In this document: in pieces, positions 11,501 through 61,891 of the stretch | Numbering within the stretch: position 1 is the stretch's first letter | Layout: the number at the start of each line of letters is the position of its first letter | Virus record (IMG/VR): IMGVR_UViG_3300048583_000100 | Location: 33,428-97,427 of that record | Source: a virus | DNA length: 64,000 bases | Reading direction: 5' to 3' (one strand) | Notes under the pieces: generated by a model | What the model was told of the DNA's origin: nothing | Databases searched by the model: none | Seen by the model: only the letters and a program-made list of their open reading frames with translations | Made by a program: the position numbers and the translations under genes

Positions 11501-11899
11501 ATGACCATTCTTCAAGATTTGCTGACTCTTCGCGAAGCAGAAGACCTCAACCCAGACGTGCCAAAGGCAGTTAACGCTATCAAGCGCAAACTGAAGGAAC
11601 CGTTCGGTAGAGAGCAGGTTAAGATTACGCTGACTCCGTCAGGTAACAAGATTGTCATCCTCCTCGAATTCAACCGCACGCTGACTGAAAAGGAATTCGA
11701 CTACGCTGTCGATGACCTCAAGGACGCAATCGAAAAGGCCGACGAGTCTGGTCGATGGGAATTCAAGGACACTGGATCGTACTTCGCTGATCCAGCTGCT
11801 CTCATGCCCAAGCGTGGCGTGATGATGGATCAAGGTGCGTTGCTTTGCGATATCGAATACACCGTTACCGTCCCAAATACGATTCGCAAGAAGCGCTAA
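11501..11899 (+). CDS. Late protein with possible capsid-targeting N-terminus
   Basis: 132 aa preceded by a strong AGGAGG. The N-terminus MTILQDLLTLRE is amphipathic and ends in L-R-E, like a T4 head-protein targeting peptide cut by gp21. The rest is alpha/beta with no recognised fold. It is one of only two plus-strand genes in the left 42 kb, and is paired with the HAD gene downstream (36 bp gap). Packaging in the head is inference from the N-terminus and promoter. Confidence 0.7.
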   Translation: MTILQDLLTLREAEDLNPDVPKAVNAIKRKLKEPFGREQVKITLTPSGNKIVILLEFNRTLTEKEFDYAVDDLKDAIEKADESGRWEFKDTGSYFADPAALMPKRGVMMDQGALLCDIEYTVTVPNTIRKKR

Positions 11900-11935
11900 C
11901 GCGCAGCTATAGTCCTTCAAACTTCGGCGCCCAAA

Positions 11936-12949
11936 ATGTTTACCTTCAAACAGTTCATCAGCGAGTCTACACTCCACGTGTTTGACATCGACGACACCCT
12001 ATTCAAGACGTCTGCTAAGGTAGTCGTTAAGAAGGGCGGCAAAATCGTTCGCTCGCTGTCTTCGTCTGAATACAACAAGGACAAGCTGAAGGACGGAGAA
12101 GTCTACGACTTCGATGAGTTCCGTTCTGCTAGGAAGTTCAAGGACGAGTCAGAGCCAATGCAGGACATGCTCGATACCGTCAATCGTATCCACAACAAGA
12201 TCAAGATGAACCTTACTCCTGGTTCCAAGATCATCATGAACACCGCTCGTAGCGATTTCGATGAGCGTGATACGTTCCTTGGTAAGTTCAGAGATCACAA
12301 AGTGGACATCGACGATATCCACGTTCATCGTGCTGGCAATGTCAAGGGCGATCAACCTACTGCAGCCAAGAAGCTCGTATTCATCCGTGGCTACTTGAAG
12401 TCTGGCAAGTACAGCAACGTCATGATGTACGATGACAGCGAAAAGAATCTAGACCATTTCCTCGGTCTTCGCGAAGAGTTCCCAGACGTAAAATTCCACG
12501 CCTACCTTGTCAAGCACACCGGTAAGCTAGTGCAGTACAACTCAGCTGAGAAGGTTACCGAGGATGATGCCGAGCTGAAAGAAAAGTATCAGCGTTGGAA
12601 GAAGCTCGTCAACATGCCATCGCCTACACTCCAGAAGTTCATTGACTCGGACACTGGCAAAGATGCCGGCCTGTCTAGACAGGAAGCTTCGTCTTTGGGG
12701 ATTAAGAGTGGGCGCGATTCAGCCCGTGCTATCCTAAGAATGCGCGCAAAGCCATTCTCCGAGTGGACAGCAGATGACATCAAGTGGATGAATCGCCAAA
12801 TCTCATTCGTAAGTCGAATGACTGGCAACCAAGGCCCGATGTTCCAGATGAAAGATGGAAAGAAGGTTCCTACTCGTAAGCTTACGAGTCTCTGGATTTG
12901 GGGTAACGTGCCAGCGGGTCATTCACCTGGCACGTACCGCATCTTTTAA
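11936..12949 (+). CDS. HAD-superfamily phosphatase-like protein, candidate packaged protein
   Basis: 337 aa. MFTFKQFISES is a capsid-targeting-like peptide (cleavage after I-S-E). A HAD domain follows: motif I DIDDTLF (about 17-23), motif II around MNTARSDF (about 100) and motif IV MYDDSEKNL (about 163-171), as in small nucleotide or 5'-end phosphatases. The C-terminal third (from about 222, SPTLQKFIDSDTGKDAGLSR) is a separate domain I have seen only as an unknown phage/mobile-element module. It converges with the minus-strand phosphoesterase, overlapping by 4 bp. Confidence 0.8.
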   Translation: MFTFKQFISESTLHVFDIDDTLFKTSAKVVVKKGGKIVRSLSSSEYNKDKLKDGEVYDFDEFRSARKFKDESEPMQDMLDTVNRIHNKIKMNLTPGSKIIMNTARSDFDERDTFLGKFRDHKVDIDDIHVHRAGNVKGDQPTAAKKLVFIRGYLKSGKYSNVMMYDDSEKNLDHFLGLREEFPDVKFHAYLVKHTGKLVQYNSAEKVTEDDAELKEKYQRWKKLVNMPSPTLQKFIDSDTGKDAGLSRQEASSLGIKSGRDSARAILRMRAKPFSEWTADDIKWMNRQISFVSRMTGNQGPMFQMKDGKKVPTRKLTSLWIWGNVPAGHSPGTYRIF

Positions 12950-13494
12950 CGCTCTCGATCCCGCGCGTCATACGGCGGGACTGCGTTCAACTTCGACTTG
13001 ATACTTTCCCAGCTGACTGGGGTGTATCCATGTGCGTCGACACCAACGTCATATCGACGATTGGTACCGTCATTGGCGATCTTCCCGTGAACATGGCCGT
13101 GAAGCATCATCGAACCGTGAAAGGCCTTCTCCCAGCTCAGCAGCGGGTAGTGGCACATGTTGACCAGATGCCCATCAAAGGTTTCGCGATGAAGGTCTGG
13201 CACCAAGCGATGGAACTTCCGCTGCATGGCTTCCGAGTATCGAATGCGCTTGTCATGGTTGCCGAGAAGCAGAATGATCTTGCCCTGAAGTCGGCGCAGA
13301 ATCTGAATTGCTCGCTGCTCGGGGCAGAAGAAGATGTCGCCAAGCACCCACACTTCGTCTCCGTCTTGAACGACAGAATTCCAGTTGGCGATCAGCGTCT
13401 CATCCATCTCTTCGGCATTTGCGAAGGGACGAGAGCAGTACTTGATGATGTTTTCGTGCCCGAAATGCGGGTCACTTGTAAAGAACCTGTTCAT
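12946..13494 (-). CDS. Metallophosphoesterase
   Basis: 182 aa with the full calcineurin-like set: TSDPHFGH (7-14), VLGDIFF (about 50), LLGNHDKR (about 76-83), a conserved His around NMCHYPL (about 113) and LHGHVHGK (about 132-139). These bind two metals and cleave phosphodiesters or monoesters. The small size and HGHVHG ending fit the YfcE/phage phosphoesterase group; cyclic dinucleotide or nucleotide substrates are possible but not shown. Start overlaps the small membrane gene by one base (TGATG). Confidence 0.85.
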   Translation of the reverse strand: MNRFFTSDPHFGHENIIKYCSRPFANAEEMDETLIANWNSVVQDGDEVWVLGDIFFCPEQRAIQILRRLQGKIILLLGNHDKRIRYSEAMQRKFHRLVPDLHRETFDGHLVNMCHYPLLSWEKAFHGSMMLHGHVHGKIANDGTNRRYDVGVDAHGYTPVSWESIKSKLNAVPPYDARDRER

Positions 13495-13637
13495 CAGCTA
13501 TTCCTGAACCACGCTCGGACGTTGCTGAACAGATTGTACTTGACGATGTCGTGCCAGGCAACTACGCCAATGCAAACGACGATCGAGAACAGCCCATACC
13601 CAACGATGGCGTACATTGCAGCTTCTTCATTACTCAT
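13494..13637 (-). CDS. Small single-pass membrane protein
   Basis: 47 aa with one hydrophobic helix (YAIVGYGLFSIVVCIGVVAW, residues 9-28) and a basic C-terminus, so probably N-out/C-in or the reverse in the inner membrane. ATG preceded by TAGGAGAA. First gene after the promoter at 13663-13691. No family recognised. Confidence 0.7.
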   Translation of the reverse strand: MSNEEAAMYAIVGYGLFSIVVCIGVVAWHDIVKYNLFSNVRAWFRNS

Positions 13638-13662
13638 CTGATTTCTCCTAATCACTTAGGTC

Positions 13663-13691
13663 ATTATACACCACGGTGAATCAGACGTACA
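13663..13691 (-). promoter_or_regulatory. Early-type promoter
   Basis: Minus strand TGTACG, 17 bp, TATAAT, reading into the membrane protein and phosphoesterase. Its downstream flank carries a palindromic CCTAA-TCAC-TTAGG (13648-13660) that resembles the end of the iterons at 17.8, 21.3 and 24.2 kb. Confidence 0.7.
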
Positions 13692-13694
13692 CTG

Positions 13695-16800: not shown

Positions 16801-16814
16801 GTCAGTAGCCTCGT

Positions 16815-20182: not shown

Positions 20183-21157
20183 TCAGATGGCCGTCAGCAG
20201 GTATTCGGCTCGGCGCTTCCAGTCACCGCCTCGGGCAGAGACCTTGGTGACCGCGATGAGGGTGCGGAGGCTGAGCTCCTTGGCCTGGTCCTTGAGCTCC
20301 TCGAGGAAGGTCAGAGCTTCACGCTTCACCTTCGGCTCGTACTCGGGCAGGAAGTCGTCCTGCAGGATGATCGCTTCCATGCGCTCGATCTTCTGAGCAG
20401 TGTTCATGGAGAGGTCGACGCAGATGGCGCGGGACCGGACGGCCTGGTCGATCTTGAAGATGGGGAGGTTCGAGATGAAGATCACGCCGCCTTCGAACTG
20501 GAAGGAGCGGGGCAGATCGTCGTCACCGAAACCTTCGGCGTTCCAGGAGATGATGCGCTTGTCGTAGGAATCGAGGGCGCCCTTGAGAAGGTTCAGAGCA
20601 ACCGGATCGCGGAGGATCGAGTCACAGTCGTCGAAGACGATCGTGCGGTAGCGATTCTCGAAGAGGGTGCGGTAGAGACCCTTGGCCGTCGAGTAGCCCT
20701 TGACGACGCTGTAGAGATTGCGCTGCTTCGAGCGGGGCAGTTCCTCGCCGATGCCGGCGGATTCCATGAACTCCGACATGTCCTTCATGCCTGCGCTGCG
20801 GAGCGCCTTGTTCACGGTGTGGGTCTTGCCGAGGCCGCCTTCACCAGTCACGAGGAGGGAAGCACTCGTGCGATCAGCGACCATGTTCACGAAGTCGGTC
20901 AGGAAGTCGAAGCGTTCGTTGATGCCGAAGCGTTCGACCTTTTCGAGCTTTCCGGTGGAGACGTCGAGCTGAGTCTCGCCGACTTCCTTCACCTTGGTAA
21001 CGCCAGCATCTGCAGCTTTGCGGCACCGGCCGCTCGTGATCATGTTGATCACGTAGTCTTTGTTCGGAGAAGCTGCGAGGACCTTGCCTGCGTACATGGC
21101 GGTCCACTTGTTCGACCGCGTGTCCAGGGAGAGGAGGGCAACATTCGACATATTCAT
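20183..21157 (-). CDS. AAA+ ATPase, paralogue of 26209-27696
   Basis: 324 aa. Walker A LLVTGEGGLGKTHTV (about 102-116), Walker B RTIVFDDCDSIL (about 171-182), an Asn/Arg region (VIFISNLPIFKIDQAVRSRA, sensor 1 and arginine finger, about 225-245) and a C-terminal lid. The same order and spacing occur in the larger protein at 26209-27696, which adds an N-terminal domain and a targeting peptide. Probably remodels a protein or DNA substrate; target unknown. Driven by the promoter at 21198-21226 behind iteron cluster 2. Confidence 0.85.
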   Translation of the reverse strand: MNMSNVALLSLDTRSNKWTAMYAGKVLAASPNKDYVINMITSGRCRKAADAGVTKVKEVGETQLDVSTGKLEKVERFGINERFDFLTDFVNMVADRTSASLLVTGEGGLGKTHTVNKALRSAGMKDMSEFMESAGIGEELPRSKQRNLYSVVKGYSTAKGLYRTLFENRYRTIVFDDCDSILRDPVALNLLKGALDSYDKRIISWNAEGFGDDDLPRSFQFEGGVIFISNLPIFKIDQAVRSRAICVDLSMNTAQKIERMEAIILQDDFLPEYEPKVKREALTFLEELKDQAKELSLRTLIAVTKVSARGGDWKRRAEYLLTAI

Positions 21158-24318: not shown

Positions 24319-25341
24319 TTATAGCAGCTTGGCGATCTCGGCTGACTTAGCTCGTAGCATGTCCTGGGTCTCGGCTGCTTTCTGCTTGGCTCGGTCGGTC
24401 TGGGCCTTGTCAAATTTGCTGCTCTTGGCCAAGTCCTCATTCTTCTTGATGTACGTTTCGCGGACCTTGGAAAGGAAATCCTCTTGCGAAGAGATGTGCT
24501 TGAGCAGTCCCTTACTGTACATGTCGTTGAGTGCGAAGGATTCTCCAAGACCCTTGATTGCTGATGCGAGATCGGCAATCTTGATTTCGGATTTCGTAAT
24601 ACCCGGGTGCGCTGCTAGACCCTTGCTGATCTTGACCTTACCTTCTCCATCTCTTTCGTGGAAAGCTTTCAGGATATCAGTTGCGAAGGTGTCGATGCTT
24701 GTAGACAGGGTGCGAAGTTTGTCGGCCTTTAAGGTGCGGAAGCTCACCACTTCACCGCCCTTCTCTTTCATCTGTACACCCGAGTCGCCAATGCTGAGAT
24801 TGAGAACTTCTGCGAGTGATGAGTAAAGGAAGCCGATGAGTGCACCCTTGACACCGTGTTCAGGAGTCATGCGATGCGAAGTCCAATCTTCGAGGTCAGT
24901 GAATGACTTGACGAGATCGATCTGAACAGCCTGATCACCGACCTGGAATACAAGAGCCGCACCCTTGAAGGATGTGCCAGCAGCCAGATATGAAAGATCG
25001 TTGTCGTCTATGTACTCGTCAAGCTCTTCACGATAGAGACGCCAGTTGTCTGAGCCTTTCATTCCCTCAATACGAGGAACGATGAACATCACATCGATGT
25101 CACCGTACTCTTTGTCTGGGTTAGACTTGAGATCGCGTTCGATGTATGCAGAGGAACCGACTGGCTTACCAAATGCGACAGGCGCAAGGTTCTTCTTTGC
25201 AAGATGAGCATTGAAGTCCTTCTCGAATCTAGGAAGCAGTGCGAGTGCCTTCTTAGCAAGAGCCGGAGTCAGAATAACGTCTTGCGTAAGGGTGCTAGAC
25301 CAGCCACCCTCAGCTAGGAACTCTTTGAATGATCGCTTCAC
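24319..25341 (-). CDS. Nucleotidyltransferase-like protein with capsid-targeting N-terminus
   Basis: 340 aa. MKRSFKEFLAEGG resembles T4 internal-protein targeting peptides (cut after L-A-E). A Pol-beta-type nucleotidyltransferase core follows: GSSAYIERDL near 68, then YGDIDVMFIV near 87 with the paired Asp. A second carboxylate may be QIDLVKSF (near 150). Helical C-terminus. It shares this plan with 41127-42008, though sequences differ. Likely made late (promoter 26183-26190, upstream gene overlaps by 4 bp), packaged and injected; both are inference. Substrate unknown. Confidence 0.75.
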   Translation of the reverse strand: MKRSFKEFLAEGGWSSTLTQDVILTPALAKKALALLPRFEKDFNAHLAKKNLAPVAFGKPVGSSAYIERDLKSNPDKEYGDIDVMFIVPRIEGMKGSDNWRLYREELDEYIDDNDLSYLAAGTSFKGAALVFQVGDQAVQIDLVKSFTDLEDWTSHRMTPEHGVKGALIGFLYSSLAEVLNLSIGDSGVQMKEKGGEVVSFRTLKADKLRTLSTSIDTFATDILKAFHERDGEGKVKISKGLAAHPGITKSEIKIADLASAIKGLGESFALNDMYSKGLLKHISSQEDFLSKVRETYIKKNEDLAKSSKFDKAQTDRAKQKAAETQDMLRAKSAEIAKLL

Positions 25342-26156
25342 GTTACATACCTAAAATTCGGAGAGCGAGAACCATTCCTGCCCGTACCTAAACTATTTAC
25401 GAGGTGCTTTACCGATTCGAAGATAGTGACACCGTCTACAGTGCAAGCCCTTTTGTTCTTTGACATATCCTTTGACTTGCGCATGTTCTGCTTTGCTTCT
25501 TCAGAATGCTTCTTACCAAGTCGGACCTGTCGAATTGATTCTTTGTGAGCCGTAGAAAATGTCGGTAAGACTTTCGACTTTCCTTTTGTGGCTTTTGAAA
25601 TATTGTGACGTGTTTCGGGAGTTCTGGTTTGTCCAGTGCCACCCTCAGAAATCTTCTTCTTGTGTTCTTCAGTTAGCACTTTACCCGTCAGCGCATTTCG
25701 AATTTTTTCACGAGCTTCAGGGGTATGCGTAGTCCAGGTTTTTGCTCTAGAAGCGGCTATCTTGTCGTACCACTCTTTTGTGCGAACATATTTCTTGGAC
25801 GCTGCTGAAAGCTTTGCACTTGTTTCTGCTTTTGTCGGTGGGCGATCATAGTAGCCTTCTCCACCGGGCCCACAATTCATGCAAGCGGGATCTTTTCTAA
25901 GCTCAACAGTAATGAGCTCTTTTTCTTTATCTGATGCTTCTTGTCGAGAAGAAAATTCGAATAGCACCTGAGATACATGCCTGTCTTTACCGTATTTTCT
26001 GATGGACTTTCTCAGTCGCATACCGCTGCCCAAATAACCATCATTCAAGTTATCAGTGCTGTGCATCCCGATATAAAAGGCACCTGTTTCAATGCAAACT
26101 GTCTTATAGACAATATGGTGCTTTCTATTTGACGCTCTAACGTACTTCTTTTCCAT
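25338..26156 (-). CDS. SegA-like GIY-YIG homing endonuclease
   Basis: 272 aa. HIVYKTVCIETGAFYIGMHS (GIY-YIG core), then the conserved Arg (GSGMRLRKSIRKYG) and Glu (ASDKEKELI). From about 110 there are NUMOD3-like helices (HTPEAREKIRNALTGK, TEEHKKKISEG, HSEEAKQNMRKS) and a C-terminal NUMOD1-like DNA-binding motif. AT-richer than its neighbours, as usual for such elements. It lies between two cargo genes and behind a TATAAATA late promoter, so it probably inserted into that operon. Confidence 0.9.
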   Translation of the reverse strand: MEKKYVRASNRKHHIVYKTVCIETGAFYIGMHSTDNLNDGYLGSGMRLRKSIRKYGKDRHVSQVLFEFSSRQEASDKEKELITVELRKDPACMNCGPGGEGYYDRPPTKAETSAKLSAASKKYVRTKEWYDKIAASRAKTWTTHTPEAREKIRNALTGKVLTEEHKKKISEGGTGQTRTPETRHNISKATKGKSKVLPTFSTAHKESIRQVRLGKKHSEEAKQNMRKSKDMSKNKRACTVDGVTIFESVKHLVNSLGTGRNGSRSPNFRYVT

Positions 26157-26182: not shown

Positions 26183-26190
26183 TATTTATA
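26183..26190 (-). promoter_or_regulatory. T4-type late promoter (TATAAATA)
   Basis: A perfect T4 late box 27 bp upstream of the GIY-YIG gene start; it would also express the nucleotidyltransferase-like gene downstream. Confidence 0.75.
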
Positions 26191-26208: not shown

Positions 26209-27696
26209 TCATGCATACAACTCCACGAGTTTTTCCCAATTTGGAGCTCCTGATGCAGCAAGGTTAAGAGCACGTACGAGCTTACGAAGGGATACGTCAC
26301 CCTTACGCTTAGAGGTCTTGACGACCTTCAGAACATTCTCACGCTCATCCTTCGAAAGGGTCATGTCGCCTTCGAGACGGATGTCATGCAGGATTCTTTC
26401 CATGTGCTCGAACATTTCGTCGTCGGTTGGATCGACGTTGATGACGAATGCACGGGTACGAAGAGCTCCGTCTGGGTCAAGCTTCGAAAGCGGAAGGTTC
26501 GAGATGAAGATGATGCGACCCTTAAAGTCGAAGTACTTAGGAGCCATGGTGGCATCGTCTTCGTACTGCTCTGGGTCTTCACTCTCTGGGTCGAAGATGA
26601 ACGAGGAGCGCTTGTTCCAAACCATTTTACGGCTCTTCTTAGTGTCGGTGGCAGCCTTGATGAGGTTGCGAGCGTCGACGTCAGCAAGAGCTCCGTCCGA
26701 GTCATCGAACAGAATGATGTCGTTGCGGTGGTGATAGAGCAGCGTGTAGACACCTGCAGCAGAAGCCGAACCGGTGTTCTTGAAGTAGCCATCGCCGTCA
26801 GTAAGACCATTAGCCTCGAGCACACGCTCAACAGTCTGAGTCTTACCAGTACCACCCTTACCAGCTACGAAGAGAGCGTTAAACGATCCCTTGATGACAG
26901 CTTGGACAAGACCCGCAAGGTGATCTAGGGTCTCGAGATATGGAGTGCGCTCGGCACCAGCCTTATCCTTACCTTCGATCTCCTCTTCCTGAGAAGACTT
27001 GAAGTAGGTTTCCTTTGTGCCACCAGCAGTCACCTCGACAACGCCAGCCTTAGAAAGGATAGAGTCCTTGAGTGACTCGATCTTTGCATCAGGGTCCAGC
27101 GTGACTCGCTTACCGTTGATGCCGAACTGTTCCTTGAACTTGTCGTAGATGGTATCGAAGACACCGGCATGGACGATGTGGTAACGACCGATGAAGTCAG
27201 AACGAGTCATCGACTTGCCGCTCTTCAGCTGGCCGAGGAAGTCAACGAGTGCAGTTTCAGCTGTAAAGTCGTCGCGCTTTGCTTCAGTGACGATCGACTC
27301 ATTCATGGCCTCTGTAGCAGAGACTGGGAATGCGAACTCCTTACCAACAGATGGGTTCTCAAGCTTCGAAACTACGAGTGGTAGAATCTGTACGAGGGAG
27401 ACGCCCTTAGAACGAATGGAGTAGTTTGGATCGTGCGACTTACCGGTGAAAATGTCGATCGATGCAAGCGAACCTGGTTTTCCGACTGCACCTTCGCTCG
27501 CCCAATTGAATCGAACGCAGCGAGTTGAACCCGACTGAACGTAGCGAACACCGTAGCCGCTACCTTCAGAGTTCTTGAAGTGTTCGATGCCTGGGATTCG
27601 GATGAACTTGACACCCAACTTCTTCTCAATGTACGAGATCATGGTTGGAAGAGCTAGACCGGTGGCCTTAGCTTCGTGCAGCTGACTTAGTTTCAT
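26209..27696 (-). CDS. AAA+ ATPase with capsid-targeting N-terminus
   Basis: 495 aa. MKLSQLHEAKA fits a head-targeting peptide (cut after L-H-E). About 130 residues of unknown domain follow, then a AAA+ module: Walker A FVAGKGGTGKTQTV (about 280), Walker B DIILFDDSDGAL, sensor 1 IIFISNLPLSKLDP and an arginine-finger region (ALRTRAF). It is an enlarged paralogue of 20183-21157. A late box (GATAAATA) lies at 27732-27739. A packaged ATPase could act on host DNA or proteins right after injection; inference. Confidence 0.8.
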   Translation of the reverse strand: MKLSQLHEAKATGLALPTMISYIEKKLGVKFIRIPGIEHFKNSEGSGYGVRYVQSGSTRCVRFNWASEGAVGKPGSLASIDIFTGKSHDPNYSIRSKGVSLVQILPLVVSKLENPSVGKEFAFPVSATEAMNESIVTEAKRDDFTAETALVDFLGQLKSGKSMTRSDFIGRYHIVHAGVFDTIYDKFKEQFGINGKRVTLDPDAKIESLKDSILSKAGVVEVTAGGTKETYFKSSQEEEIEGKDKAGAERTPYLETLDHLAGLVQAVIKGSFNALFVAGKGGTGKTQTVERVLEANGLTDGDGYFKNTGSASAAGVYTLLYHHRNDIILFDDSDGALADVDARNLIKAATDTKKSRKMVWNKRSSFIFDPESEDPEQYEDDATMAPKYFDFKGRIIFISNLPLSKLDPDGALRTRAFVINVDPTDDEMFEHMERILHDIRLEGDMTLSKDERENVLKVVKTSKRKGDVSLRKLVRALNLAASGAPNWEKLVELYA

Positions 27697-39822: not shown

Positions 39823-40932
39823 TCAGACGTGTAGCATCTCTTTTGCAGTGTTGATCAGCATCTTAGGATCGCTTGAGCCCATGAGCATCAGGTAAGGACC
39901 TTCGAACCATATTTCAGCATTTTCGAATCCTGAGTCTGATTTGGAGGGAACGTTCTTCGCGACATCTGCATAAGAGCCAATCTGGATTCCCATATTCTTT
40001 GGGTCGAGCATGTCATGAAGAGCATCTGATAGCTTAGGATGCTTGCGAACGATCTGATCCATACGGATGATCAGCGTTTTCAGATAGACGTGACTACCCA
40101 TTTCAATAACGCGCTTAAACAATGCTGCGTGTTTCCCGCCCAGAGATTCTTTGAATGCGGCATAAAGCGTGTCAACATTCCGTAGAGATTCAGCATCCCA
40201 CGTAAGATCTGTTTTCTGTCTATCGTAATCTGCTGAAAAGATGTCTGGGGAAATGTCCAAAGCTTTAACGAAGTCATCTTTCTTGGTCAGCTTCATGAAA
40301 GGAATATCGTAGATGTCGCTGACGATCTGCGATTTAGAAGGCTTTTTGGCGCTGTCATCTTGCATCAACAACTCATCGGTAAACGTTCCGTCATGCGAGA
40401 AGTGGCGAGCATGTTTGCTGAGCTTTTTGAGTAGCAAGATGAGGTCTTTCACAGCACCGCCAGCGTCGTAATACGACATCTTGGTATCCGGCACGTGCAG
40501 ATAGTTGAAGTCTTTTGTCGTCCACGCAAAGCGCTTAACCGAATTCAAAGGTAGAACCATACCCAGCGTACCAAATTCCTTGGCACCACCTGCACTCAAG
40601 GATGTAAAGGTCGACATGGAACGATCTGGAATACCTTCTTTCTTCCAACGAGGATCGGTCTTCGACATGCGAAGCAACATCGAGTTGCCAGTTAGAGACT
40701 TGCGCTCTGTAGTTCTGCCGCCGAAATACAGCAACTTGAAACCATCGCCAAGGCGGTAAACCGCAGTCGCGTGGTTCTCAGCGCTATTGACACCACGCCA
40801 TAGAACACCAGGGTTCTTGATGGCTTCGCTAGTAGCGGCTATGACACGCTTGGCCTCAGACAAATCTTGACTTTCATCGCCATCATCCGCGTAACCGTCG
40901 TCGTAAGATTCAAATAGTTCGCGAAGTTTCAT
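39823..40932 (-). CDS. Possible ADP-ribosyltransferase with capsid-targeting N-terminus
   Basis: 369 aa. MKLRELFES matches the targeting peptide of T4 Alt (MELITELFDE) with cutting after L-F-E. GVLWRGVNSAENHATAV (near 43) could supply the NAD-binding Arg (R-G), and DRSMSTFTSLSAGGAKEFG (near 101) the S-T-S block with its following helix, as in R-S-E ADP-ribosyltransferases. I do not see a clear E-x-E. Alternative: an unrelated packaged enzyme. Its late run starts at 42008 (promoter 42038-42045). Confidence 0.55.
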   Translation of the reverse strand: MKLRELFESYDDGYADDGDESQDLSEAKRVIAATSEAIKNPGVLWRGVNSAENHATAVYRLGDGFKLLYFGGRTTERKSLTGNSMLLRMSKTDPRWKKEGIPDRSMSTFTSLSAGGAKEFGTLGMVLPLNSVKRFAWTTKDFNYLHVPDTKMSYYDAGGAVKDLILLLKKLSKHARHFSHDGTFTDELLMQDDSAKKPSKSQIVSDIYDIPFMKLTKKDDFVKALDISPDIFSADYDRQKTDLTWDAESLRNVDTLYAAFKESLGGKHAALFKRVIEMGSHVYLKTLIIRMDQIVRKHPKLSDALHDMLDPKNMGIQIGSYADVAKNVPSKSDSGFENAEIWFEGPYLMLMGSSDPKMLINTAKEMLHV

Positions 40933-41126: not shown

Positions 41127-42008
41127 TTAGAGCTCCTCAGGAACCGGAAGCTTGAGTCGTTCAAGCTCAGACTTGCTAGCCTTGATGACTTCGGCTGCAT
41201 TGGGAAGCTTCTTAACAAGAGCAATGACACCTTCAGCAGTCATGACGTCTGCGGGCTTAGCACCCTTACCGAAGATGTACTTGACGATCTCATTTGGATC
41301 ATTCGTAGCTTCAAGCTCCTTCGAGAACTTGATTGACTTGCCCATCTTCTTGAGGATGGCTTCGAGCTCTTCAGGAGTTACGGTGTCTACAGACTTGTTG
41401 AGCTTGCCAGTCTTCTCATTGAATTTGGCAGCCTTGAAGAGACGCTTCATGCCAGAATCCATGGTGATGGATTTGGAAGCACGAGCATAAGGCTTTCCAT
41501 TCTCATCACGGAGAACGAAGTCCTTGTCCTTCTCTTGCTTGTGAGCCAGTGCCGTGAACATAATGATGTTGCGAACTGCACCGGGATACTTGGAGCCAGC
41601 TCCCTGAGCAGAGTGGTACATAAAGCGAGCCCAGTCCTTGTCGTTGACGAACATCAGGTCGACTTGAACCTTCTTGCCGTTTACTGGGACTGCGTAAGAG
41701 CCAACCTTGGTACCTGCGTTGTAGCCACCCTCACCATTGGTTGCCTTCAGCATCTTGGCGTCGATGTCTTTGACATCAGAATCTTCCAAGGAGAATGCAA
41801 TATCGATGTCACCGCTGTCCTTCTTCTTTCCAAGAAGAGTAAGAGCCGTAGAGCCGAGGAGGTCCGCTTTCAGAGTTTCTACTGAGACACCAGTAGCCTT
41901 TGACACGAATTCGAGCGCAGCCTTGACATCTGCTGTGGTCGCGCGATCTGTTCCGTACTTAGAAGTAGCTCCGCCACCTTCAGCGAGGAACTGTTTGAAC
42001 GTAATCAT
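41127..42008 (-). CDS. Nucleotidyltransferase-like protein with capsid-targeting N-terminus
   Basis: 293 aa. MITFKQFLAEGG is nearly the same peptide as in 11936 (MFTFKQFISES) and 24319 (SFKEFLAEGG), with cutting after L-A-E. LLGSTALTLLGKKKDSGDIDIAF (quoted in two parts: GSTALTLLG, then SGDIDIAF) is a Pol-beta-type nucleotidyltransferase signature, and KKVQVDLMFV gives the third carboxylate. Lys-rich helical C-terminus. Promoter: GATAAATA at 42038-42045. Substrate unknown (protein AMPylation or RNA ends are possible). Confidence 0.78.
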   Translation of the reverse strand: MITFKQFLAEGGGATSKYGTDRATTADVKAALEFVSKATGVSVETLKADLLGSTALTLLGKKKDSGDIDIAFSLEDSDVKDIDAKMLKATNGEGGYNAGTKVGSYAVPVNGKKVQVDLMFVNDKDWARFMYHSAQGAGSKYPGAVRNIIMFTALAHKQEKDKDFVLRDENGKPYARASKSITMDSGMKRLFKAAKFNEKTGKLNKSVDTVTPEELEAILKKMGKSIKFSKELEATNDPNEIVKYIFGKGAKPADVMTAEGVIALVKKLPNAAEVIKASKSELERLKLPVPEEL

Positions 42009-42063: not shown

Positions 42064-42071
42064 GATAAATA
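42064..42071 (+). promoter_or_regulatory. T4-type late promoter (GATAAATA), plus strand
   Basis: Late box for the tail-fibre module, 57 bp before ATG 42128. Confidence 0.75.
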
Positions 42072-44680: not shown

Positions 44681-44704
44681 CTCCCTGAAGACGGAGAAAC
44701 ACTC

Positions 44705-46395: not shown

Positions 46396-46413
46396 TCAAG
46401 GCTTGAACACAAA

Positions 46414-49400: not shown

Positions 49401-49710
49401 GACGAACGTTCGAGACATCGCGAGCGCTACCAAGAAGTTGATGTCTATTGGTGGTTACGTGTTCGACTGGGATAAGGAAGCTTGCTTGATCGCGGGCTTC
49501 AAACCAGATCATGACACTGAACATGGTGTGCTTGCTCAGGAAATTGAACAGGTTATGCCCGATGCAACTGCTCCAGCACCATTCAACAATGATTACCTCA
49601 CCGTTAAATACGAGAGACTGACGGCACTTCTTATTGCGGGCTTCAAGGAGCAACAGAAGGTCATTGAAGATTTGAAGTGGGAAATTGAAAAGCTTAAGGG
49701 GAACTTCTAA
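46414..49710 (+). CDS. Long tail fibre with C-terminal S74 chaperone
   Basis: 1098 aa. A shaft of repeats (NTGDQTITLTGDVTGTGTGS type; VSGSVATATTTPAITITLGA three times) is followed by a beta-rich distal region and, from about 990, an intramolecular chaperone: SDSRLKTNVRDI (catalytic Ser and Lys), VLAQEIEQVMP and a C-terminal coiled coil. S74 domains assist trimer folding and then cut themselves off. Shares the segment ADVLAKLLTVDG...GLDADxLDGQSGAYYL with the fibre at 42128. Likely the main host-range determinant. Confidence 0.92.
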   Translation: MDFPASPSINDLHTINGKTWKWNGEGWESVVTDPLSGYTAADVLAKLLTVDGSGSGLDADFLDGQSGAYYLDLANATGTVTSAMMPAYTGDVTSSAGATVNTIAANAVTFAKFQQIATASFIGRDTAGTGNAEVLSVAAAKTLLNLTGTNSGDQTITLTGNVTGSGTGSFATTIAAGAVTLANMANVATGTVFYRKTAASGAPEVQTLATLKTDLGLTGTNSGDQTITLTGHVTGSGTGSFATTIGSGVITNAMQANMAANTLSGNNTGSAAAPADLTVAQVKTLLNYTKSDVGLANVENTALSTWAGSSNITTVGTGVITLANMANIATASFIGRTTAATGVPEALTVTQATAMLNVFTSALKGLAPASGGGTTNFLRADGTWAAPPASGTVTSVSVTTAAGVSGSVATATTTPAITITLGAITPTSVAASGTVTGSNLSGTHTGTSSGTNTGDQTITLTGDVTGTGTGSFAATIAAASVTLAKMANIATNSLIGRSTALSGVPEVITVGSGLTLSAGVLSASGGTGTVTTVSVTTANGVSGSVATATTTPAITITLGAITPTSVAASGTVTGSNLSGTNTGDQTTITGNAGSATVLQTGRTIAISGAVTGTATSFNGSANITIPITALDVGSATAGTLAVARGGTGIASYTVGNYIYASGTTTLAQRTPAQVRSDIGAGTGNGTVTSVSVTTANGVSGSVATSTTTPAITITLGAITPTSIVASGAITAGDAIMSKGSNAGLFFENRANATQTAGWYRNGAEVILNYSAIGDVATISSAGNAGFNGSIIAGGSITCASGNITTPQNFISSTANIVLATTGAGGVYLRPSGAGSTTGQLVIGSTGDVSISGGVTATGSYFASAGSLAILGTTGAGTVSLRPQGAGSATNEVSISSAGAMTVNNQLRVQGTVRAQSETTSLSGEGIEMYYSASRGYVIVYDRTTNGWKTLRHYGLNVETYASNTLIMDTTTSGIAVTGAITATGNITAYSSDSRLKTNVRDIASATKKLMSIGGYVFDWDKEACLIAGFKPDHDTEHGVLAQEIEQVMPDATAPAPFNNDYLTVKYERLTALLIAGFKEQQKVIEDLKWEIEKLKGNF
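47587..48600 (+). repeat. Threefold repeat cassette in tail fibre
   Basis: Three copies of a cassette of about 40 codons (VSGSVATATTTPAITITLGA and flanks) begin near 47587, 48000 and 48470. Protein copies are almost identical, while the DNA differs at many third positions, so they are old copies kept by selection and not recent duplications. Confidence 0.8.
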
Positions 49711-57936: not shown

Positions 57937-58071
57937 TTACTGCTGCGAACCATCTGCAGACTTATACTTTTCAATGAAGCTCTTTACTCGGGACCAAATT
58001 GCTTTTCCTAGTACCATCCAGAAGGGTGCAAAGGCGGCTCCGACTACAACACCGAGAATGAAGTCAATCAT
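57937..58071 (-). CDS. Small single-pass membrane protein
   Basis: 44 aa; ATG overlaps the upstream stop (TAATG). Hydrophobic helix FILGVVVGAAFAPFWMVLG (4-22), then a basic tail. Typical of tiny phage membrane proteins. Function unknown. Confidence 0.7.
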   Translation of the reverse strand: MIDFILGVVVGAAFAPFWMVLGKAIWSRVKSFIEKYKSADGSQQ

Positions 58072-58604
58072 TACACGGCTCTCGTGGACTTACTGCCCAT
58101 CTTAGCTTTTGCCTTGTCCCACTTCTTCAAAACTTCCTCTAGCGAGGTCGACCAAATTCCTACGAGTGAACCAACCGGATCACCGGCCTTCATGCGAGGC
58201 TTTGGTGAGTTGAGTCGTGTCTGTGCTTCTTGACCCCAGCCACCATTGGTTGAATAACGGATCTGACCATTTGCGAAAATCTTGTACTGCGCGTTGAACT
58301 TCTTGCCGCTTGGATACACGCGATTTGTTTCAAACGAGAGTGTGCCCTTCTTTTCAGAAGCCGGCAGCTCCACATACTTCATGCCATCAGCGCCAGTAGC
58401 CTTCTTGAAAATTGCCGTGTCCTTGAACTTCTTCAAAGCTTCAGCAATATCGTCCTTGGTAATGTCCATCGTATCAAGCCAATCGAGAACAGATCCAAGA
58501 AGCTGCTTCTTGTCATCGTCGTAGCGTGGCGAGTAGTAAGCGCCAGCGCTTAGGTTGCGCTTCGGCGAGCTCTGTACTGCTTCAAAGAGGTCAGATACTT
58601 TCAT
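58071..58604 (-). CDS. Candidate packaged protein
   Basis: 177 aa. MKVSDLFEA is a capsid-targeting-like peptide (cut after L-F-E), very close to MKLRELFES at 39823. The rest is alpha/beta and basic (KRNLSAGAYYSPRYDDDKKQ) with no recognised domain. Behind a GATAAATA late promoter at 58639-58646. Followed by a tiny membrane protein and a terminator. Packaging is inference. Confidence 0.7.
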   Translation of the reverse strand: MKVSDLFEAVQSSPKRNLSAGAYYSPRYDDDKKQLLGSVLDWLDTMDITKDDIAEALKKFKDTAIFKKATGADGMKYVELPASEKKGTLSFETNRVYPSGKKFNAQYKIFANGQIRYSTNGGWGQEAQTRLNSPKPRMKAGDPVGSLVGIWSTSLEEVLKKWDKAKAKMGSKSTRAV

Positions 58605-58646: not shown

Positions 58647-58677
58647 CAGATGTCACGATGGTGACACCGAAAGATGG

Positions 58678-58750
<73 letters not shown>

Positions 58751-58759
58751 ACATTGTGT

Positions 58760-59215
58760 TTATTTATCACCAGCAAGAAGCTTGGCAGCCTTCCTGACGA
58801 TTGAAGCCTGTGACTTTCTGCCCTGAGCAATGAACTGCTTCTCGGTTAGCCAGTGAGTCGACTTGGTTTCGTAGTGGGGTTTCTTGAAGTCGTCTTTGTC
58901 CTTGACCTCGCCCATGTAAATCGTCATCTTGTAAGACTCTTTCTTACCACGGACCTTGCTAGAGAAGACTACTTGAATGGTTTCCTTGATGAGATTGCCA
59001 CGCTTAAGACCGAGTTCCTCTCGACCTTCACGAAGCGCAGCTTCATATACGCCCTCACCAGTGTCAATTCCGCCCTTAGCTAGCTGGGGTTCTGCACCAC
59101 CATACTGCGCTTTAGAAGGCGTCATGAAGTAAAAGAGCGGCTCACCATTCTCATAGACATAGGGGATGAATCCGGCACGCTCTCTCACGTCAGGTAGAAT
59201 CTCGTCTAGCTTCAT
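58760..59215 (-). CDS. Nudix hydrolase, candidate packaged protein
   Basis: 151 aa. Complete Nudix box GGIDTGEGVYEAALREGREELGL (G48, E54, R62, E63, E66, E67, G69). MKLDEILPDV starts the protein; L-D-E at 3-5 or V-R-E at 10-12 could be cut by a head protease, but this is weaker than in the other cargo genes. Nudix enzymes hydrolyse nucleoside diphosphates linked to other groups (ADP-ribose, NADH, capped RNA). Shares an operon with 59221-59667 behind the late box at 59708-59715. Confidence 0.88.
   Translation of the reverse strand: MKLDEILPDVRERAGFIPYVYENGEPLFYFMTPSKAQYGGAEPQLAKGGIDTGEGVYEAALREGREELGLKRGNLIKETIQVVFSSKVRGKKESYKMTIYMGEVKDKDDFKKPHYETKSTHWLTEKQFIAQGRKSQASIVRKAAKLLAGDK
58761..58768 (-). 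promoter_or_regulatory. T4-type late promoter (GATAAATA) before tRNA-Thr
   Basis: Late box overlapping the end of the Nudix gene, 11 bp before the tRNA; it could drive the tRNA. Confidence 0.5.
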
Positions 59216-59220
59216 GAACC

Positions 59221-59667
59221 TTACTTTACAGCCTTAGGCTTCTTGATCTGTAGGTCCATGTTTACGAAGTTGTTACCCTGCATACCCTGCTCGGAGTAAC
59301 CGACGCTCTTCACGTACTGTGTGAGCTTCTTCTTGTCAAGGAGTTCCTTGAAGGACTTGAGGAAGTTCGAGTCAGTGTAGATGAGGTCATGCTTCGATGC
59401 CTTGTAGCCGTCAAGCACGATGTCGATGACGCCGTCAGCGGTCTTGCTACCATCATTTTCTTCGTCGAAGTAGTGAGGACGAATTGCCTTGATGACGAAG
59501 GTCATCTCTTCATCGTTCTTACCCCATAGACCACGGCTCTTCTTGCCATAGGCCTTGACCTTTGAGCCGACTAGAGCTGCGCTCATAGCCTTCAGAATTT
59601 CCTTGGTCGTTGTAGGAACTGGAGCAGCCTCGTTTACAACCTGCTTGATTAGTTCGAATGTCTTCAT
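59221..59667 (-). CDS. Candidate packaged protein
   Basis: 148 aa. MKTFELIKQVVNEAAP resembles the targeting peptide of T4 internal proteins (MKTYQEFIAEA), with cutting after V-N-E. The rest is Lys-rich and mixed alpha/beta (IKAIRPHYFDEENDG). No recognised domain. AATAAATA late box at 59708-59715. Five bases before the Nudix gene start. Confidence 0.7.
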   Translation of the reverse strand: MKTFELIKQVVNEAAPVPTTTKEILKAMSAALVGSKVKAYGKKSRGLWGKNDEEMTFVIKAIRPHYFDEENDGSKTADGVIDIVLDGYKASKHDLIYTDSNFLKSFKELLDKKKLTQYVKSVGYSEQGMQGNNFVNMDLQIKKPKAVK

Positions 59668-59707
59668 GTTGATTCCTTAGAATGGATGGAGCACTTGGTT
59701 CGCAGGG

Positions 59708-59715
59708 TATTTATT
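59708..59715 (-). promoter_or_regulatory. T4-type late promoter (AATAAATA)
   Basis: Late box 41 bp upstream of the cargo gene at 59667, just after the end of the release-factor-like gene. Confidence 0.7.
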
Positions 59716-59719
59716 GCTC

Positions 59720-60391
59720 TTACCACATTAGATCGAAGAACCCGCCGAGAACTTTGTCACACTTTACAGTGCAGCCGCTCGCATGATCCTTTACGACATT
59801 GTCTTGGAAGCGGTACGTTCTCATCTTGTCACCTCTCATACCTGAGCCGACCTGCTGCTTACGCGTAGAAGACAGCTCTGCTCCAGCGATCATAGACTGT
59901 CGACGGTTGACTCTTTCGAGGATTGCTGTCTTAGCTTCGTCAAGGGAATTCTCTCGACTACGACATGATGCTGTGGCTGTGGTTGAGGTCGGGATATGGA
60001 TGATGCGACAGGAGTTCTGGGTCTTGTTACGATGCTGCCCACCAGGTCCAGTTCCGGAGTACCACTCTATGCGGAAGTCGCGATCGTTAAATTCGATTCG
60101 CTTTACTTCCTTTGGGTCTATGATTGCGACAGTGACGGTAGACGAATGAACACGTCCACGTTTTTCATTCGGTGGGATTCGCTGAACGCGATGGCCACCG
60201 GACTCTTTCTGAAGCTCTGATAGATCGTCGCCCGTTACTTCAATTGAAAGTTCACCGGGCCTATCGTCTATCAGGCGGTGAGTTCAACCGAAGCGAACGA
60301 ACATTTTGGTGTAAGCCTTCGCCAGATCACGTGCGAACAGCTTAGCATCTTCTCCGCCTTCGGCGGCTCTTAGTTCGATAATGCGCTTCAT
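59720..60391 (-). CDS. Class I release-factor-like protein with an in-frame UGA
   Basis: 223 codons with AAGGAG before ATG 60391. Contains GTGPGGQHRNK (GGQ at 117-119), GGHRVQRIPPNEKRGRVHSS (codon-recognition loop; PPN at 73-75 where RF1 has PxT) and RGDKMRTYRFQDN near the end. The N-terminal domain of RF1 is missing. Codon 36 is TGA (60284-60286), in frame, at the place where relatives have Trp (RFG-W-x-x). The frame stays open and conserved after it. Readthrough, regulated suppression, nonsense mutation or sequencing error are possible; a +1 shift runs into a stop soon. Confidence 0.8.
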
Positions 60392-60402
60392 TGAATTACT
60401 CC

Positions 60403-60606
60403 TTAGATTGGATCACACTCTCCGCGTTCGATCATTATTGCTCGAACTGCGTCATTTACTTCTTGCTTCTCTTCTTCGCTAAGCTCCCACCAAAGGGTGT
60501 CTAGCTTATCTAGAATTTCATCTTCTACGCTATCGTCGGCATTGCCATCTCGCGCAGCCAGAAGATACCGAGTTTCTTCCATGTACTTTTCGACTTTCGT
60601 TGTCAT
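60403..60606 (-). CDS. Small acidic helical protein
   Basis: 67 aa, highly acidic (DDSVEDEILDKLDTLWWEL), predicted helical. ATGA overlap with peptide deformylase upstream and 11 bp before the release-factor-like gene. Unknown function. Confidence 0.7.
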   Translation of the reverse strand: MTTKVEKYMEETRYLLAARDGNADDSVEDEILDKLDTLWWELSEEEKQEVNDAVRAIMIERGECDPI

Positions 60607-61091
60607 GCTACATTCCTTTCTTCTGGGTCGGCATACTTATCGAAGGTGATGCCATTGAGATGGTCGAGTTCGTGCTGGAAGCAAATAGCGTCAATGCCAT
60701 CCAGATCAAGAGTGAACTCCTCAAAGTTCTCGTCGACGGCCTGGACTTGAATGCTGTTTGGACGAGCAACAGTCATTGCGACACCAGGAAAACTGAGACA
60801 CCCTTCCTTGAAGGGTTCGCGCTTTCGACTGACGGATAGAATTTCTGGATTGATGAACACTCTACGACCAACACTCTTGGGGTATCCAGTTTTGCTGGTG
60901 TCCATCACGAAGATGCGGGCGGCACAGTCCACCTGAATAGCAGCAAGCCCGATCGCCCCGTGATAGTACATGGTTTCAAACATGTCAGGTACGAAATGAT
61001 TTATCAGGAAGTTGCCAGCTTCGTCGTCGCGTACAGCAATGCTATGACAGTGAAGTCTCAGGTCTGGACTTTTGAGAAGCGGCAGAATCAT
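60603..61091 (-). CDS. def: Peptide deformylase
   Basis: 162 aa. All three motifs: GAIGLAAIQVD (46-55), EGCLSFPG with metal-ligand Cys98, and QHELDHLNG with His140, Glu141 and His144. Removes the formyl group from nascent proteins. Phage copies are known in several groups, shorter at the C-terminus than host enzymes, as here. Co-operonic with the release-factor-like gene, so a translation-related module. Confidence 0.95.
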   Translation of the reverse strand: MILPLLKSPDLRLHCHSIAVRDDEAGNFLINHFVPDMFETMYYHGAIGLAAIQVDCAARIFVMDTSKTGYPKSVGRRVFINPEILSVSRKREPFKEGCLSFPGVAMTVARPNSIQVQAVDENFEEFTLDLDGIDAICFQHELDHLNGITFDKYADPEERNVA

Positions 61092-61110
61092 GGGTACGCT
61101 CTAGAATTGG

Positions 61111-61180
61111 TCTCGCTGGTGGGATTCGAACCCTACAAACTCAACCTTCGGAGGGTCGAGACCGATCCATCGGCAGCGAG
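61111..61180 (-). tRNA. Unusual tRNA-Arg (CCG)
   Basis: 70 nt with 7-bp acceptor CTCGCTG/CAGCGAG, discriminator A and encoded CCA (61108-61110). Anticodon arm CGACC-CTCCGAA-GGTTG gives anticodon CCG. Odd: the D-arm is only CCGA-TGGA-TCGG, without the normal A14 and G18-G19 loop, and the T-stem has a bulged A (GT-A-GGG/CCCAC). May be degenerate or a specialised tRNA. Confidence 0.65.
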
Positions 61181-61217
61181 ATATTGGTGGGTCGCAATCT
61201 ATTTAAGCGACCGTATG

Positions 61218-61457
61218 TCAGTGGGTAATCAGCCCCAGCATCTCTGCTAGATGACTGAAACCTGGGACCTTAGTCCAGAGAAAATGTTCAAGCGGGAAGA
61301 GCAGAGTCTGCGCTGCCCAGAAGGACGGCATCTTCACGAAGCTCTTACAGTGGTGATAGCACTTGACTAGAAAACCCCGCTCGTCTGCATGAAAATGTGG
61401 AGGGCAGTTGTGGTGATCGTCAAGATTGATATGAGGGTGTTCGTGGTCATGCGCCAT
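61218..61457 (-). CDS. His-rich small protein
   Basis: About 79 aa from the internal ATG (MAHDHEHPHINLDDHHNCPP). Eleven His in the first 45 residues suggest metal binding. One hydrophobic segment (FWAAQTLLFPLEHFLW) later. A TTG further upstream would add 10 residues. No family recognised. Confidence 0.65.
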   Translation of the reverse strand: MAHDHEHPHINLDDHHNCPPHFHADERGFLVKCYHHCKSFVKMPSFWAAQTLLFPLEHFLWTKVPGFSHLAEMLGLITH

Positions 61458-61492
61458 GTTTTCATTCTCTAAAGTAGGGTGGAACAAACGGG

Positions 61493-61891
61493 TTACTTCT
61501 TTGCGTTTAGAATTTCCTCAATGGCGGATGCACTGCCACGAATGTAAATCTCAGCCTTAGGCTTTCTGTCTCTAAAGCTTGAGCTGACGGAAACTTCAAC
61601 TCCAGATGGGTGCTTGAATTTTGCACCGTAAGTATCGCTAGAGAAGTCTCCGCGAGACGAGCCACCATCGGCTCTCATGTCAGCCTTATCGAACCCCAAT
61701 GTTCTGAGGTATTCGTTAGCGCCATGATCTTTTGCGGTATGATTGAGATTAGAAGAATACGAAAGACTTGAGCCAGTGCTCGACGTGTTCTTTACAGTCG
61801 GCTTTGCGTAACCGCAATGCTTGGCTATTTCAGTAGCCAGCGTAAGTGCGGGGTCCTTGCTGACAGCTTCGAGCAGGTCATTGAGTTTCAT
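61493..61891 (-). CDS. Candidate packaged protein
   Basis: 132 aa. MKLNDLLEAVS is a capsid-targeting-like peptide (cut after L-L-E). Ser/Thr-rich middle (KNTSSTGSSLSYSSNLN) and a basic end (SSSFRDRKPKAEIYIRG). No domain recognised. Has its own late promoter at 61914-61921. Confidence 0.7.
   Translation of the reverse strand: MKLNDLLEAVSKDPALTLATEIAKHCGYAKPTVKNTSSTGSSLSYSSNLNHTAKDHGANEYLRTLGFDKADMRADGGSSRGDFSSDTYGAKFKHPSGVEVSVSSSFRDRKPKAEIYIRGSASAIEEILNAKK

What the first reader, a model, noticed from the sequence alone, without database searches (positions are those of the whole stretch)
11501..61891. A set of candidate head-packaged (injected) proteins marked by a shared N-terminal peptide
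About ten proteins start with an amphipathic 8-16-residue peptide ending in (L/I/V)-x-E: MFTFKQFISES (11936), MKRSFKEFLAEGG (24319), MKLSQLHEA (26209), MKLRELFES (39823), MITFKQFLAEGG (41127), MKVSDLFEA (58071), MKTFELIKQVVNEA (59221), MKLNDLLEA (61493), and weaker MTILQDLLTLRE (11501) and MKLDEIL (58760). Seen: the peptides have the same length and pattern while the downstream domains are unrelated (HAD, two nucleotidyltransferase-like, AAA+, ART-like, Nudix, unknown). Known: T4 internal proteins and Alt carry such targeting peptides, cut by gp21 after (L/I)-x-E. Inferred: these are cargo, injected with DNA to act before phage transcription. The collection of enzyme types appears undescribed.
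Basis: partly seen in the sequence, partly recalled or inferred. Interest (0 to 1): 0.88.

Follow-up and report, generated by a model that had tools for sequence, protein, structure and literature searches.

The report
Head-packaging tags on jumbo-phage enzymes
A giant T4-related virus of bacteria puts the same kind of short 'pack me into the head' address label on at least nine otherwise unrelated proteins, so they are probably carried inside the virus and injected with its DNA; the label can be used to predict which proteins such viruses inject.

Summary
The peptides are real and eight of the ten named proteins hold up. The window is part of a 97-kb fragment of a Rak2/XacN1-like jumbo myophage. 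Two tight N-terminal patterns, the T4 internal-protein type (M..F..F[LI]xE: 3 seen, 0.1 expected) and a short type (MK[LV]..LxE[AS]: 4 seen, 0.01 expected), far exceed chance; the loose (L/I/V)xE does not. One more tagged protein lies outside the window. A T4-type late-promoter motif (NATAAATA) precedes all 8 tagged operons but only 7 of 48 others (p=5e-6). In IMG/VR the long tag sits on 68 sequence clusters, against none for the reversed pattern. A gp21-type (S77) protease is in 10/10 tag-bearing contigs of 50 kb or more, but 2/14 random ones. Relatives place tagged ART arrays among head and tail genes. One tagged enzyme, the S-SM1 cytidyltransferase, was found in virions by others (PMC3037559). 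Best reading: capsid-targeting propeptides, cut by a gp21-type protease, loading enzymes into the head for injection. Not shown for this phage: the protease gene (no head genes in the fragment), cleavage, presence in the virion, injection. A known mechanism (T4 CTS) with a new, broad cargo set.

The parts
11936..12949 (+). HAD-family (PseT-phosphatase-like) protein; tag MFTFKQFISE|S at 11936-11965
   Evidence: IMG/VR homologue L070, 46% identical with tag MITFKEFLSE|S
11501..11899 (+). 132-aa protein heading the operon of 11936; weak tag MTILQDLLTLRE|A at 11501-11536
   Evidence: weak on pattern, late-promoter motif 30 nt upstream
24319..25341 (-). Nucleotidyltransferase-like protein (GS..GDID..D motif, read from sequence); tag MKRSFKEFLAE|GG at 25309-25341 (GTG start)
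   Evidence: orthologue L288 55% identical with tag MISFKEFITE
26209..27696 (-). New N-terminal domain plus NrdC.10-type AAA+ ATPase; tag MKLSQLHE|A at 27673-27696
   Evidence: phrog_1250 E=1.2e-32; orthologue with a different-length leader ending FVTE|A
20183..21157 (-). Untagged paralogue of the same AAA+ domain (NrdC.10 orthologue), for contrast
   Evidence: phrog_1250 E=3.5e-56; alignment A3
39823..40932 (-). ADP-ribosyltransferase-like protein; tag MKLRELFE|S at 40909-40932
   Evidence: aligns with the Atu_ph07 tagged ART array over the LWRG and RSxSxFT regions (weak, E=9e-4); phrog_12810
41127..42008 (-). Pol-beta-type nucleotidyltransferase; tag MITFKQFLAE|GG at 41979-42008
   Evidence: alignment A1; AlphaFold2 model pLDDT 87, with 49 in the first ten residues; Foldseek hit to DNA pol lambda E=1.8e-4
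58071..58604 (-). 177-aa protein of unknown function; tag MKVSDLFE|A at 58581-58604
58760..59215 (-). Nudix hydrolase, in the operon of 59221; tag doubtful (MKLDEILPDVRE)
   Evidence: PF00293 E=1.4e-9
59221..59667 (-). Protein with a phage domain ending near SEQGMQGNN; tag MKTFELIKQVVNE|A at 59629-59667
   Evidence: homologues in L012-L020 have no such leader; homologue in L011 has another leader
61493..61891 (-). 132-aa protein of unknown function; tag MKLNDLLE|A at 61868-61891
11471..11478 (+). Late-promoter-like CATAAATA, 30 nt before 11501
26183..26190 (-). Late-promoter-like TATAAATA before the operon 25338-26156 / 24319-25341
   Evidence: an AATAAATA lies at the same place in relative L288
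27732..27739 (-). Late-promoter-like GATAAATA, 43 nt before 26209-27696
   Evidence: a CATAAATA lies at the same place in relative L288
42038..42045 (-). Late-promoter-like GATAAATA, 37 nt before 41127-42008 (operon 41127/40929/39823)
   Evidence: a CATAAATA lies at the same place in relative L005
58639..58646 (-). Late-promoter-like GATAAATA, 42 nt before 58071-58604
59708..59715 (-). Late-promoter-like AATAAATA, 48 nt before 59221-59667
61914..61921 (-). Late-promoter-like CATAAATA, 30 nt before 61493-61891
42064..42071 (+). Same motif before the tail-fibre operon 42128-49710 (internal positive control for late expression)

Best explanation
The peptides are capsid-targeting propeptides of the T4 kind. 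The tagged genes are transcribed late, from T4-type late promoters, together with virion genes. The N-terminal 8-13 residues dock each protein on the prohead core through hydrophobic/aromatic residues spaced as in the T4 internal-protein CTS (long class, M-x-x-F-x-x-F-[LI]-x-E) or as in T4 gp24/Alt propeptides (short class, MK-[LV]-x-x-L-x-E). During head maturation a gp21-type (S77) protease cuts after the glutamate. The freed enzymes (two nucleotidyltransferases, an ART or two, a HAD phosphatase, an AAA+ ATPase, possibly a Nudix, and small unknown proteins) stay in the head and enter the next host with the DNA, where they probably modify host molecules or blunt defences. Shown by sequence: tags, excess over chance, late promoters, protease and gene context in relatives, modularity. 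Inferred: targeting, cutting, injection and effector role in this phage.
For: Class A 3 seen vs 0.10 expected and class B 4 vs 0.01. T4's own gp21 substrates have the same two forms: ipII/ipIII MKTYQEFIAE, gp24 MAKINELLRE|S, Alt MELITELFDE. T4 mutagenesis puts targeting at residues 4 and 7 and processing at 8 and 10 (PMC9026906), which are the aromatic, leucine/isoleucine and Glu positions kept here. Orthologues of the 41127 protein at 28-70% identity keep M1, F4, K5, E10, G11, G12 although the tag length varies. Late motif NATAAATA at 8/8 tagged transcription units vs 7/48 others, p=4.5e-6, and 0 in the reverse-complement control; in XacN1 the motif precedes portal and scaffold. S77 in 10/10 tag-bearing contigs of 50 kb or more vs 2/14 random, p=3e-5. 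IMG/VR: at least 120 contigs with M[KNIMRS]TFK[EQ]F[LIMF]xE vs 0 for the reversed peptide; 7 in all held bacterial genomes, mostly unrelated singletons. 128 tagged proteins fall in 68 clusters. Tagged ARTs sit among terminase, sheath, portal, protease and MCP. Atu_ph07: 16 class-B proteins vs 0.13 expected, 12 of them inside the CDS 31-76 cluster, where 29 of 46 products are virion proteins by MS (PMC6102473). S-SM1 cytidyltransferase MKKFSAFLNE|A is in the purified virion (PMC3037559).
Against: No protease, MCP or scaffold in the 97-kb record, so the phage's own cleavage rule is unknown. In PA5oct, MS-detected proteins are not significantly richer in a loose tag pattern (10/90 vs 15/223, p=0.14). 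XacN1 virion enzymes named in its paper (chitinase ORF272, lipase ORF279) have no such tag, so a tag is not required for being in a virion. The Atu_ph07 and cyanophage MS data say 'in the virion', not 'in the head' or 'injected'. Which of the 46 Atu_ph07 products were found could not be read. The 416-kb contig of L011 has tag-like leaders but no S77 match.
Confidence: 0.87

Rival explanations
1. The peptides are packaging signals that are never cut: they dock the proteins on the scaffold or inner capsid and remain attached in the virion.
For: The fragment shows no protease. SPN3US-like giant phages package many ejection proteins without short CTS cleavage (PMC5694885).
Against: The Glu, usually with a small residue after it, is kept while tag length varies; this is the gp21 cut rule and is not needed for docking in T4, where residues 4 and 7 target. 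S77 proteases co-occur with tags.
Confidence: 0.07
2. The tagged proteins are late-made but not packaged: the amphipathic N-terminal helix sends them to another place, such as the membrane, the assembly site or the lysis machinery.
For: Late promoters alone do not prove packaging.
Against: Likeness of the tag to T4 CTSs shown to package foreign proteins. Tagged genes sit between portal and protease or directly after the MCP in relatives. Tagged GC190 is in S-SM1 virions.
Confidence: 0.05
3. The likeness is chance, or is inherited within protein families.
For: The loose motif alone is not enriched. NTase homologues share the N-terminal region by descent.
Against: Unrelated domains share the tag. 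Tag present on one paralogue and absent from another. Tagless homologues of the 59221 domain. Reversed-pattern control empty.
Confidence: 0.01

Closest known systems
T4 internal proteins IPI-IPIII and their capsid-targeting sequence (Mullaney and Black; reviewed in PMC9026906)
   Same: About 10-residue N-terminal peptide, aromatic residues at positions 4 and 7, I/L at 8, Glu at 10, then a small residue; T4-related lineage with a gp21-type protease in its complete relatives
   Different: Cargo here is enzymes of several folds, not small anti-restriction proteins; packaging and cutting not yet shown; a second, shorter tag class
T4 Alt (head-packaged ADP-ribosyltransferase) and gp24 propeptide
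   Same: Short MExxxELFDE / MAKINELLRE type propeptide; ART cargo
   Different: The ART here (39823) is shorter and only distantly related; in Atu_ph07 the family forms a tandem array of ten tagged copies
Polyvalent/MuF-fused and NAD-ADPr virion effectors (PMC5512222, PMC9503650)
   Same: ART, Nudix and other enzymes predicted to be packaged and injected by myoviruses
   Different: There packaging is inferred from fusion to head proteins or from gene context; here from a cleavable N-terminal tag on free-standing proteins
Giant-phage ejection proteins (phiKZ, SPN3US; PMC5694885)
   Same: Internal proteins with propeptides cut after Glu by a gp21-related protease
   Different: Their propeptides are mostly over 100 residues and cut at A/S-x-E; here 8-13 residues and L/I/V-x-E

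Membership tests
T4-type capsid-targeting sequence (gp21 substrate) | Short N-terminal peptide with spaced aromatic/hydrophobic residues ending hydrophobic-x-Glu | tested here: met
   Class A 3 and class B 4 proteins vs 0.10 and 0.01 expected
T4-type capsid-targeting sequence (gp21 substrate) | Modular: same peptide on unrelated domains, domain also found without it | tested here: met
   68 clusters share the tag; tagless paralogue and tagless homologues
T4-type capsid-targeting sequence (gp21 substrate) | gp21-type (S77) protease in the same phage | tested here: inconclusive
   Absent from the 97-kb fragment, which has no head genes; present in Atu_ph07 and annotated in XacN1; 10/10 tag-bearing contigs vs 2/14 controls
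T4-type capsid-targeting sequence (gp21 substrate) | Expressed with late/virion genes | tested here: met
   NATAAATA before 8/8 tagged units and before the tail-fibre operon; sequence evidence only, no transcript data
T4-type capsid-targeting sequence (gp21 substrate) | Protein present in the mature virion | not testable with these tools
   Uncultivated phage; published MS supports it for the tagged cytidyltransferase of cyanophage S-SM1 (PMC3037559)
T4-type capsid-targeting sequence (gp21 substrate) | Cut after the Glu and delivered to the host | not testable with these tools
   No proteomics of this phage
ART (R-S-E ADP-ribosyltransferase), gene 39823 | R, S and E motifs of the fold | tested here: inconclusive
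   LWRG and RSxSxFT align with the Atu_ph07 ART profile; Glu motif not located; single-sequence fold failed, pLDDT 34
Pol-beta-type nucleotidyltransferase, gene 41127 | GS...DxD...D catalytic motif and Pol-beta fold | tested here: met
   Invariant G52, D67, D69, D117; Foldseek hits to DNA pol lambda
Rak2/XacN1-like jumbo T4-related phages | Related T4-type DNA polymerase and topoisomerase | tested here: met
   DNA polymerase nearest to Stenotrophomonas CM1 and XacN1 (35-36% identity); T4-type topoisomerase II subunits

The most novel reading that the evidence does not exclude
The T4 capsid-targeting tag is a general export code of T4-related phages, from cyanophages to jumbo phages: dozens of unrelated enzymes, some in tandem arrays, are loaded into heads by gaining a short N-terminal peptide. 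The tag plus a late promoter therefore predicts each such phage's injected effector set directly from sequence.
Probability: 0.7. Interest if true: 0.85.

Novelty: new variant of a known kind. Interest (0 to 1): 0.74.

Why it matters
Which proteins a phage injects with its DNA is mostly unknown, because virion proteomics cannot tell head cargo from tail parts and most phages are uncultivated. A sequence-readable tag, checked by late promoters and by protease co-occurrence, turns that into a prediction over metagenomes. It nominates enzyme classes not usually listed as head cargo (Pol-beta nucleotidyltransferases, a HAD phosphatase, NrdC.10-type AAA+ ATPase; in relatives also zeta-toxin-like kinases, glucosaminidase, cytidyltransferases and acetyltransferases). 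It also gives many natural tag variants for protein-delivery heads of the T4 type in laboratory E. coli.

Tried and rejected
Loose (L/I/V)-x-E motif: no excess. S77 in the window's own record: none, uninformative because of the fragment. PA5oct, whose record flags MS-detected proteins: loose tag not significantly enriched, so I do not use it as support. XacN1: its paper's text names only three virion enzymes; two (ORF272, ORF279) have no tag. Atu_ph07 Table S5 and the figures could not be read, so only the cluster-level MS statement is used. T4-GC15, the other core protein named in the S-SM1 virion, is annotated as a tail protein and is irrelevant. Relatives of the genes at 39823, 58071 and the outside ART were sought in IMG/VR without success. 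AlphaFold2 of 39823 alone failed. hhalign of the outside ART with the Atu_ph07 profile found nothing; its ART label rests on YRG...SSWTT...EAEMIL read by eye. The Atu_ph07 homologue of 41127 has no clear tag. Searching papers for the literal peptides found none.
Full report
WHAT THE RECORD IS. The window is bases 33428-97427 of a linear 97,427-base IMG/VR virus record. I read the remaining 33 kb too and called 154 genes. The DNA polymerase (35-36% identical to Stenotrophomonas phage CM1 and Xanthomonas phage XacN1) and T4-type topoisomerase subunits place it with the T4-related Rak2/XacN1-like jumbo phages, whose genomes are 320-490 kb. I recognised no head gene in it, so it is a fragment.

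THE OBSERVATION. All ten N-termini are there. The bare '(L/I/V)-x-E' is not more common than chance (27 vs 25.7), and a stricter version only moderately so (13 vs 4.7). Two tight classes are far above chance: A, M..F..F[LI]xE (3 vs 0.10: genes 11936, 24319, 41127), and B, MK[LV]xxLxE[AS] (4 vs 0.01: genes 26209, 39823, 58071, 61493). The pattern definitions were informed by T4, by Atu_ph07 and by the finding itself, so the counts in this genome are not fully blind. 59221 is supported in other ways (below). 11501 and 58760 are weak. A further tagged gene lies outside the window (record 30303-31982, MQLIRLLQEAS).

THE T4 PRECEDENT. In T4 itself class A recovers ipII, ipIII and gp61.1. T4's gp21 substrates gp24 (MAKINELLRE|S) and Alt (MELITELFDE) look like class B. 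Review PMC9026906 reports that the first ten residues of IPIII suffice for incorporation into the head, that residues 4 and 7 carry targeting, and that 8 and 10 carry processing. Those are the F, F, L/I and E of class A here. In an alignment of the 41127 family at 28-70% identity, M1, F4, K5, E10, G11 and G12 are invariant although up to five residues are inserted between F7 and E10.

LATE PROMOTERS. NATAAATA, the T4 late -10 box with a free first base, lies 30-48 nt upstream of the head gene of all 8 transcription units that contain a core tagged gene, against 7 of 48 other units (hypergeometric p=4.5e-6). The same windows read in reverse complement give none. One of the seven other units is the tail-fibre operon. 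In XacN1 the motif precedes portal and scaffold genes and a tagged ORF314, MRFVQYLIEAS. It is also upstream of the orthologues of 41127 (L005), of 26209 and of the 25338/24319 operon (L288). The tagged genes thus look late, like virion genes, rather than early like ordinary host-takeover genes.

THE TAG IS MODULAR AND WIDESPREAD. A DNA scan of IMG/VR for M[KNIMRS]TFK[EQ]F[LIMF]xE hit its limit at 120 contigs; the same peptide in reverse order hit none. In 84,980 bacterial and archaeal genomes there were seven hits, mostly unrelated singletons. With the first 11 residues removed, 128 tagged proteins fall into 68 BLAST clusters. They include a HAD homologue of 11936 (L070, 46% identity), zeta-toxin/AAA_33 kinase, glucosaminidase, lytic-transglycosylase-like DPBB, GNAT, PLA2-like and ART-PolyVal proteins, several of these below Pfam's cut-off. 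The same domain also occurs without the tag. The AAA+ part of 26209 has an untagged paralogue in the same genome (20183) and an untagged T4 homologue, NrdC.10. The 59221 domain starts without such a leader in nine contigs and carries another leader, MNHLAIIQSEFVKEA, shared by four proteins, in a 416-kb phage. The orthologue of 26209 keeps only hydrophobic-x-E-A of its tag, in a leader of other length.

PROTEASE AND HEAD CONTEXT. Peptidase S77 (gp21 type) is in 10 of 10 tag-bearing contigs of at least 50 kb, against 2 of 14 contigs drawn with a neutral pattern (p=3e-5). In G007 an array of tagged ARTs, a GNAT and others lies among terminase, portal, protease and MCP; in G005 four tagged ORFs follow the MCP; in G015 and G017 a tagged ORF sits between portal and protease (head genes named by position and by eye). 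In Atu_ph07 ten ARTs of 18-39% identity to the first share only 14 invariant columns, among them M1, W3, L6 and E8 of the tag and the putative ART R, S and E. Twelve of its 16 class-B proteins lie in CDS 31-76, where 29 of 46 products were found in virions by MS (PMC6102473); I could not read which.

DIRECT VIRION EVIDENCE FROM OTHERS. The cytidyltransferase T4-GC190 was detected in purified cyanophage S-SM1 virions (PMC3037559). Its N-terminus is MKKFSAFLNE|AERSF, a class-A tag, and P-SSM7 has MKKFSAFLTEA. The PA5oct record, which also flags MS-detected proteins, gave no significant support with a loose pattern.

CARGO. 41127 is a Pol-beta-type nucleotidyltransferase: confident model, the tag its least confident block, hits to DNA polymerase lambda. 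24319 is a second nucleotidyltransferase-like protein by motif. 39823 is probably an ART. 11936 is HAD/PseT-phosphatase-like. 58760 is a Nudix enzyme with doubtful tag. 58071, 59221 and 61493 are unknown. What they do in the host is open; by analogy with T4 Alt, IPI-IPIII (PMC12373910) and the NAD-ADPr network (PMC9503650), modification of host machinery or counter-defence is likely but not shown.

VERDICT. A T4-type capsid-targeting system with a new, enzyme-rich cargo set. Packaging, cutting and injection in this phage remain inferences.

Noticed in passing
record bases 25414-25809 (-) and 26251-26679 (+), outside the window: Two more genes behind late-promoter motifs begin MKLNEIKNVKAGDYDLTEG and (second in its unit) MKLSQVKQLPILKEG: possible longer tags like T4 IPI.
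   Followed up: partly
T4 gene 61.1 (L162:18966-19130): T4 gp61.1, 54 aa, starts MKTFKEFIKE, a canonical class-A tag on a protein not listed among the T4 internal proteins in the papers read.
   Followed up: partly
record bases 32040-32414 (outside) and window 7815-8288: A Macro-domain protein just upstream of the outside tagged ART, and a gp30.3-family protein: possible parts of the NAD/ADP-ribose network of large phages.
   Followed up: no
window 26209-27696: The AAA+ protein has a second possible cut site (NESIVTEA, near residue 150) between its new N-terminal domain and the ATPase.
   Followed up: no
window 40929-41126; PA5oct 262106-262300: A 65-aa protein between two tagged genes resembles (by eye) a PA5oct protein that has an extra ILE|S leader (MKLSEICILESSELDE): the tag may come and go even on tiny proteins.
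   Followed up: no
window 25338-26156: GIY-YIG-like (by eye) reading frame directly upstream of the tagged NTase, in the same late unit; also present in relative L288.
   Followed up: no
window 58675-63869: Seven tRNA genes interleaved with the 58-62 kb tagged genes.
   Followed up: no
L011 (416-kb record): Four proteins share a 40-residue leader MxHxAxIQSEF[IV]KEA.KW...YL+RHPKSKR; no S77 match was found in this record.
   Followed up: partly
L003:22694-32717 (Atu_ph07 gp53-gp62): Tandem array of about ten diverged, tagged ART paralogues, an unusual expansion.
   Followed up: partly
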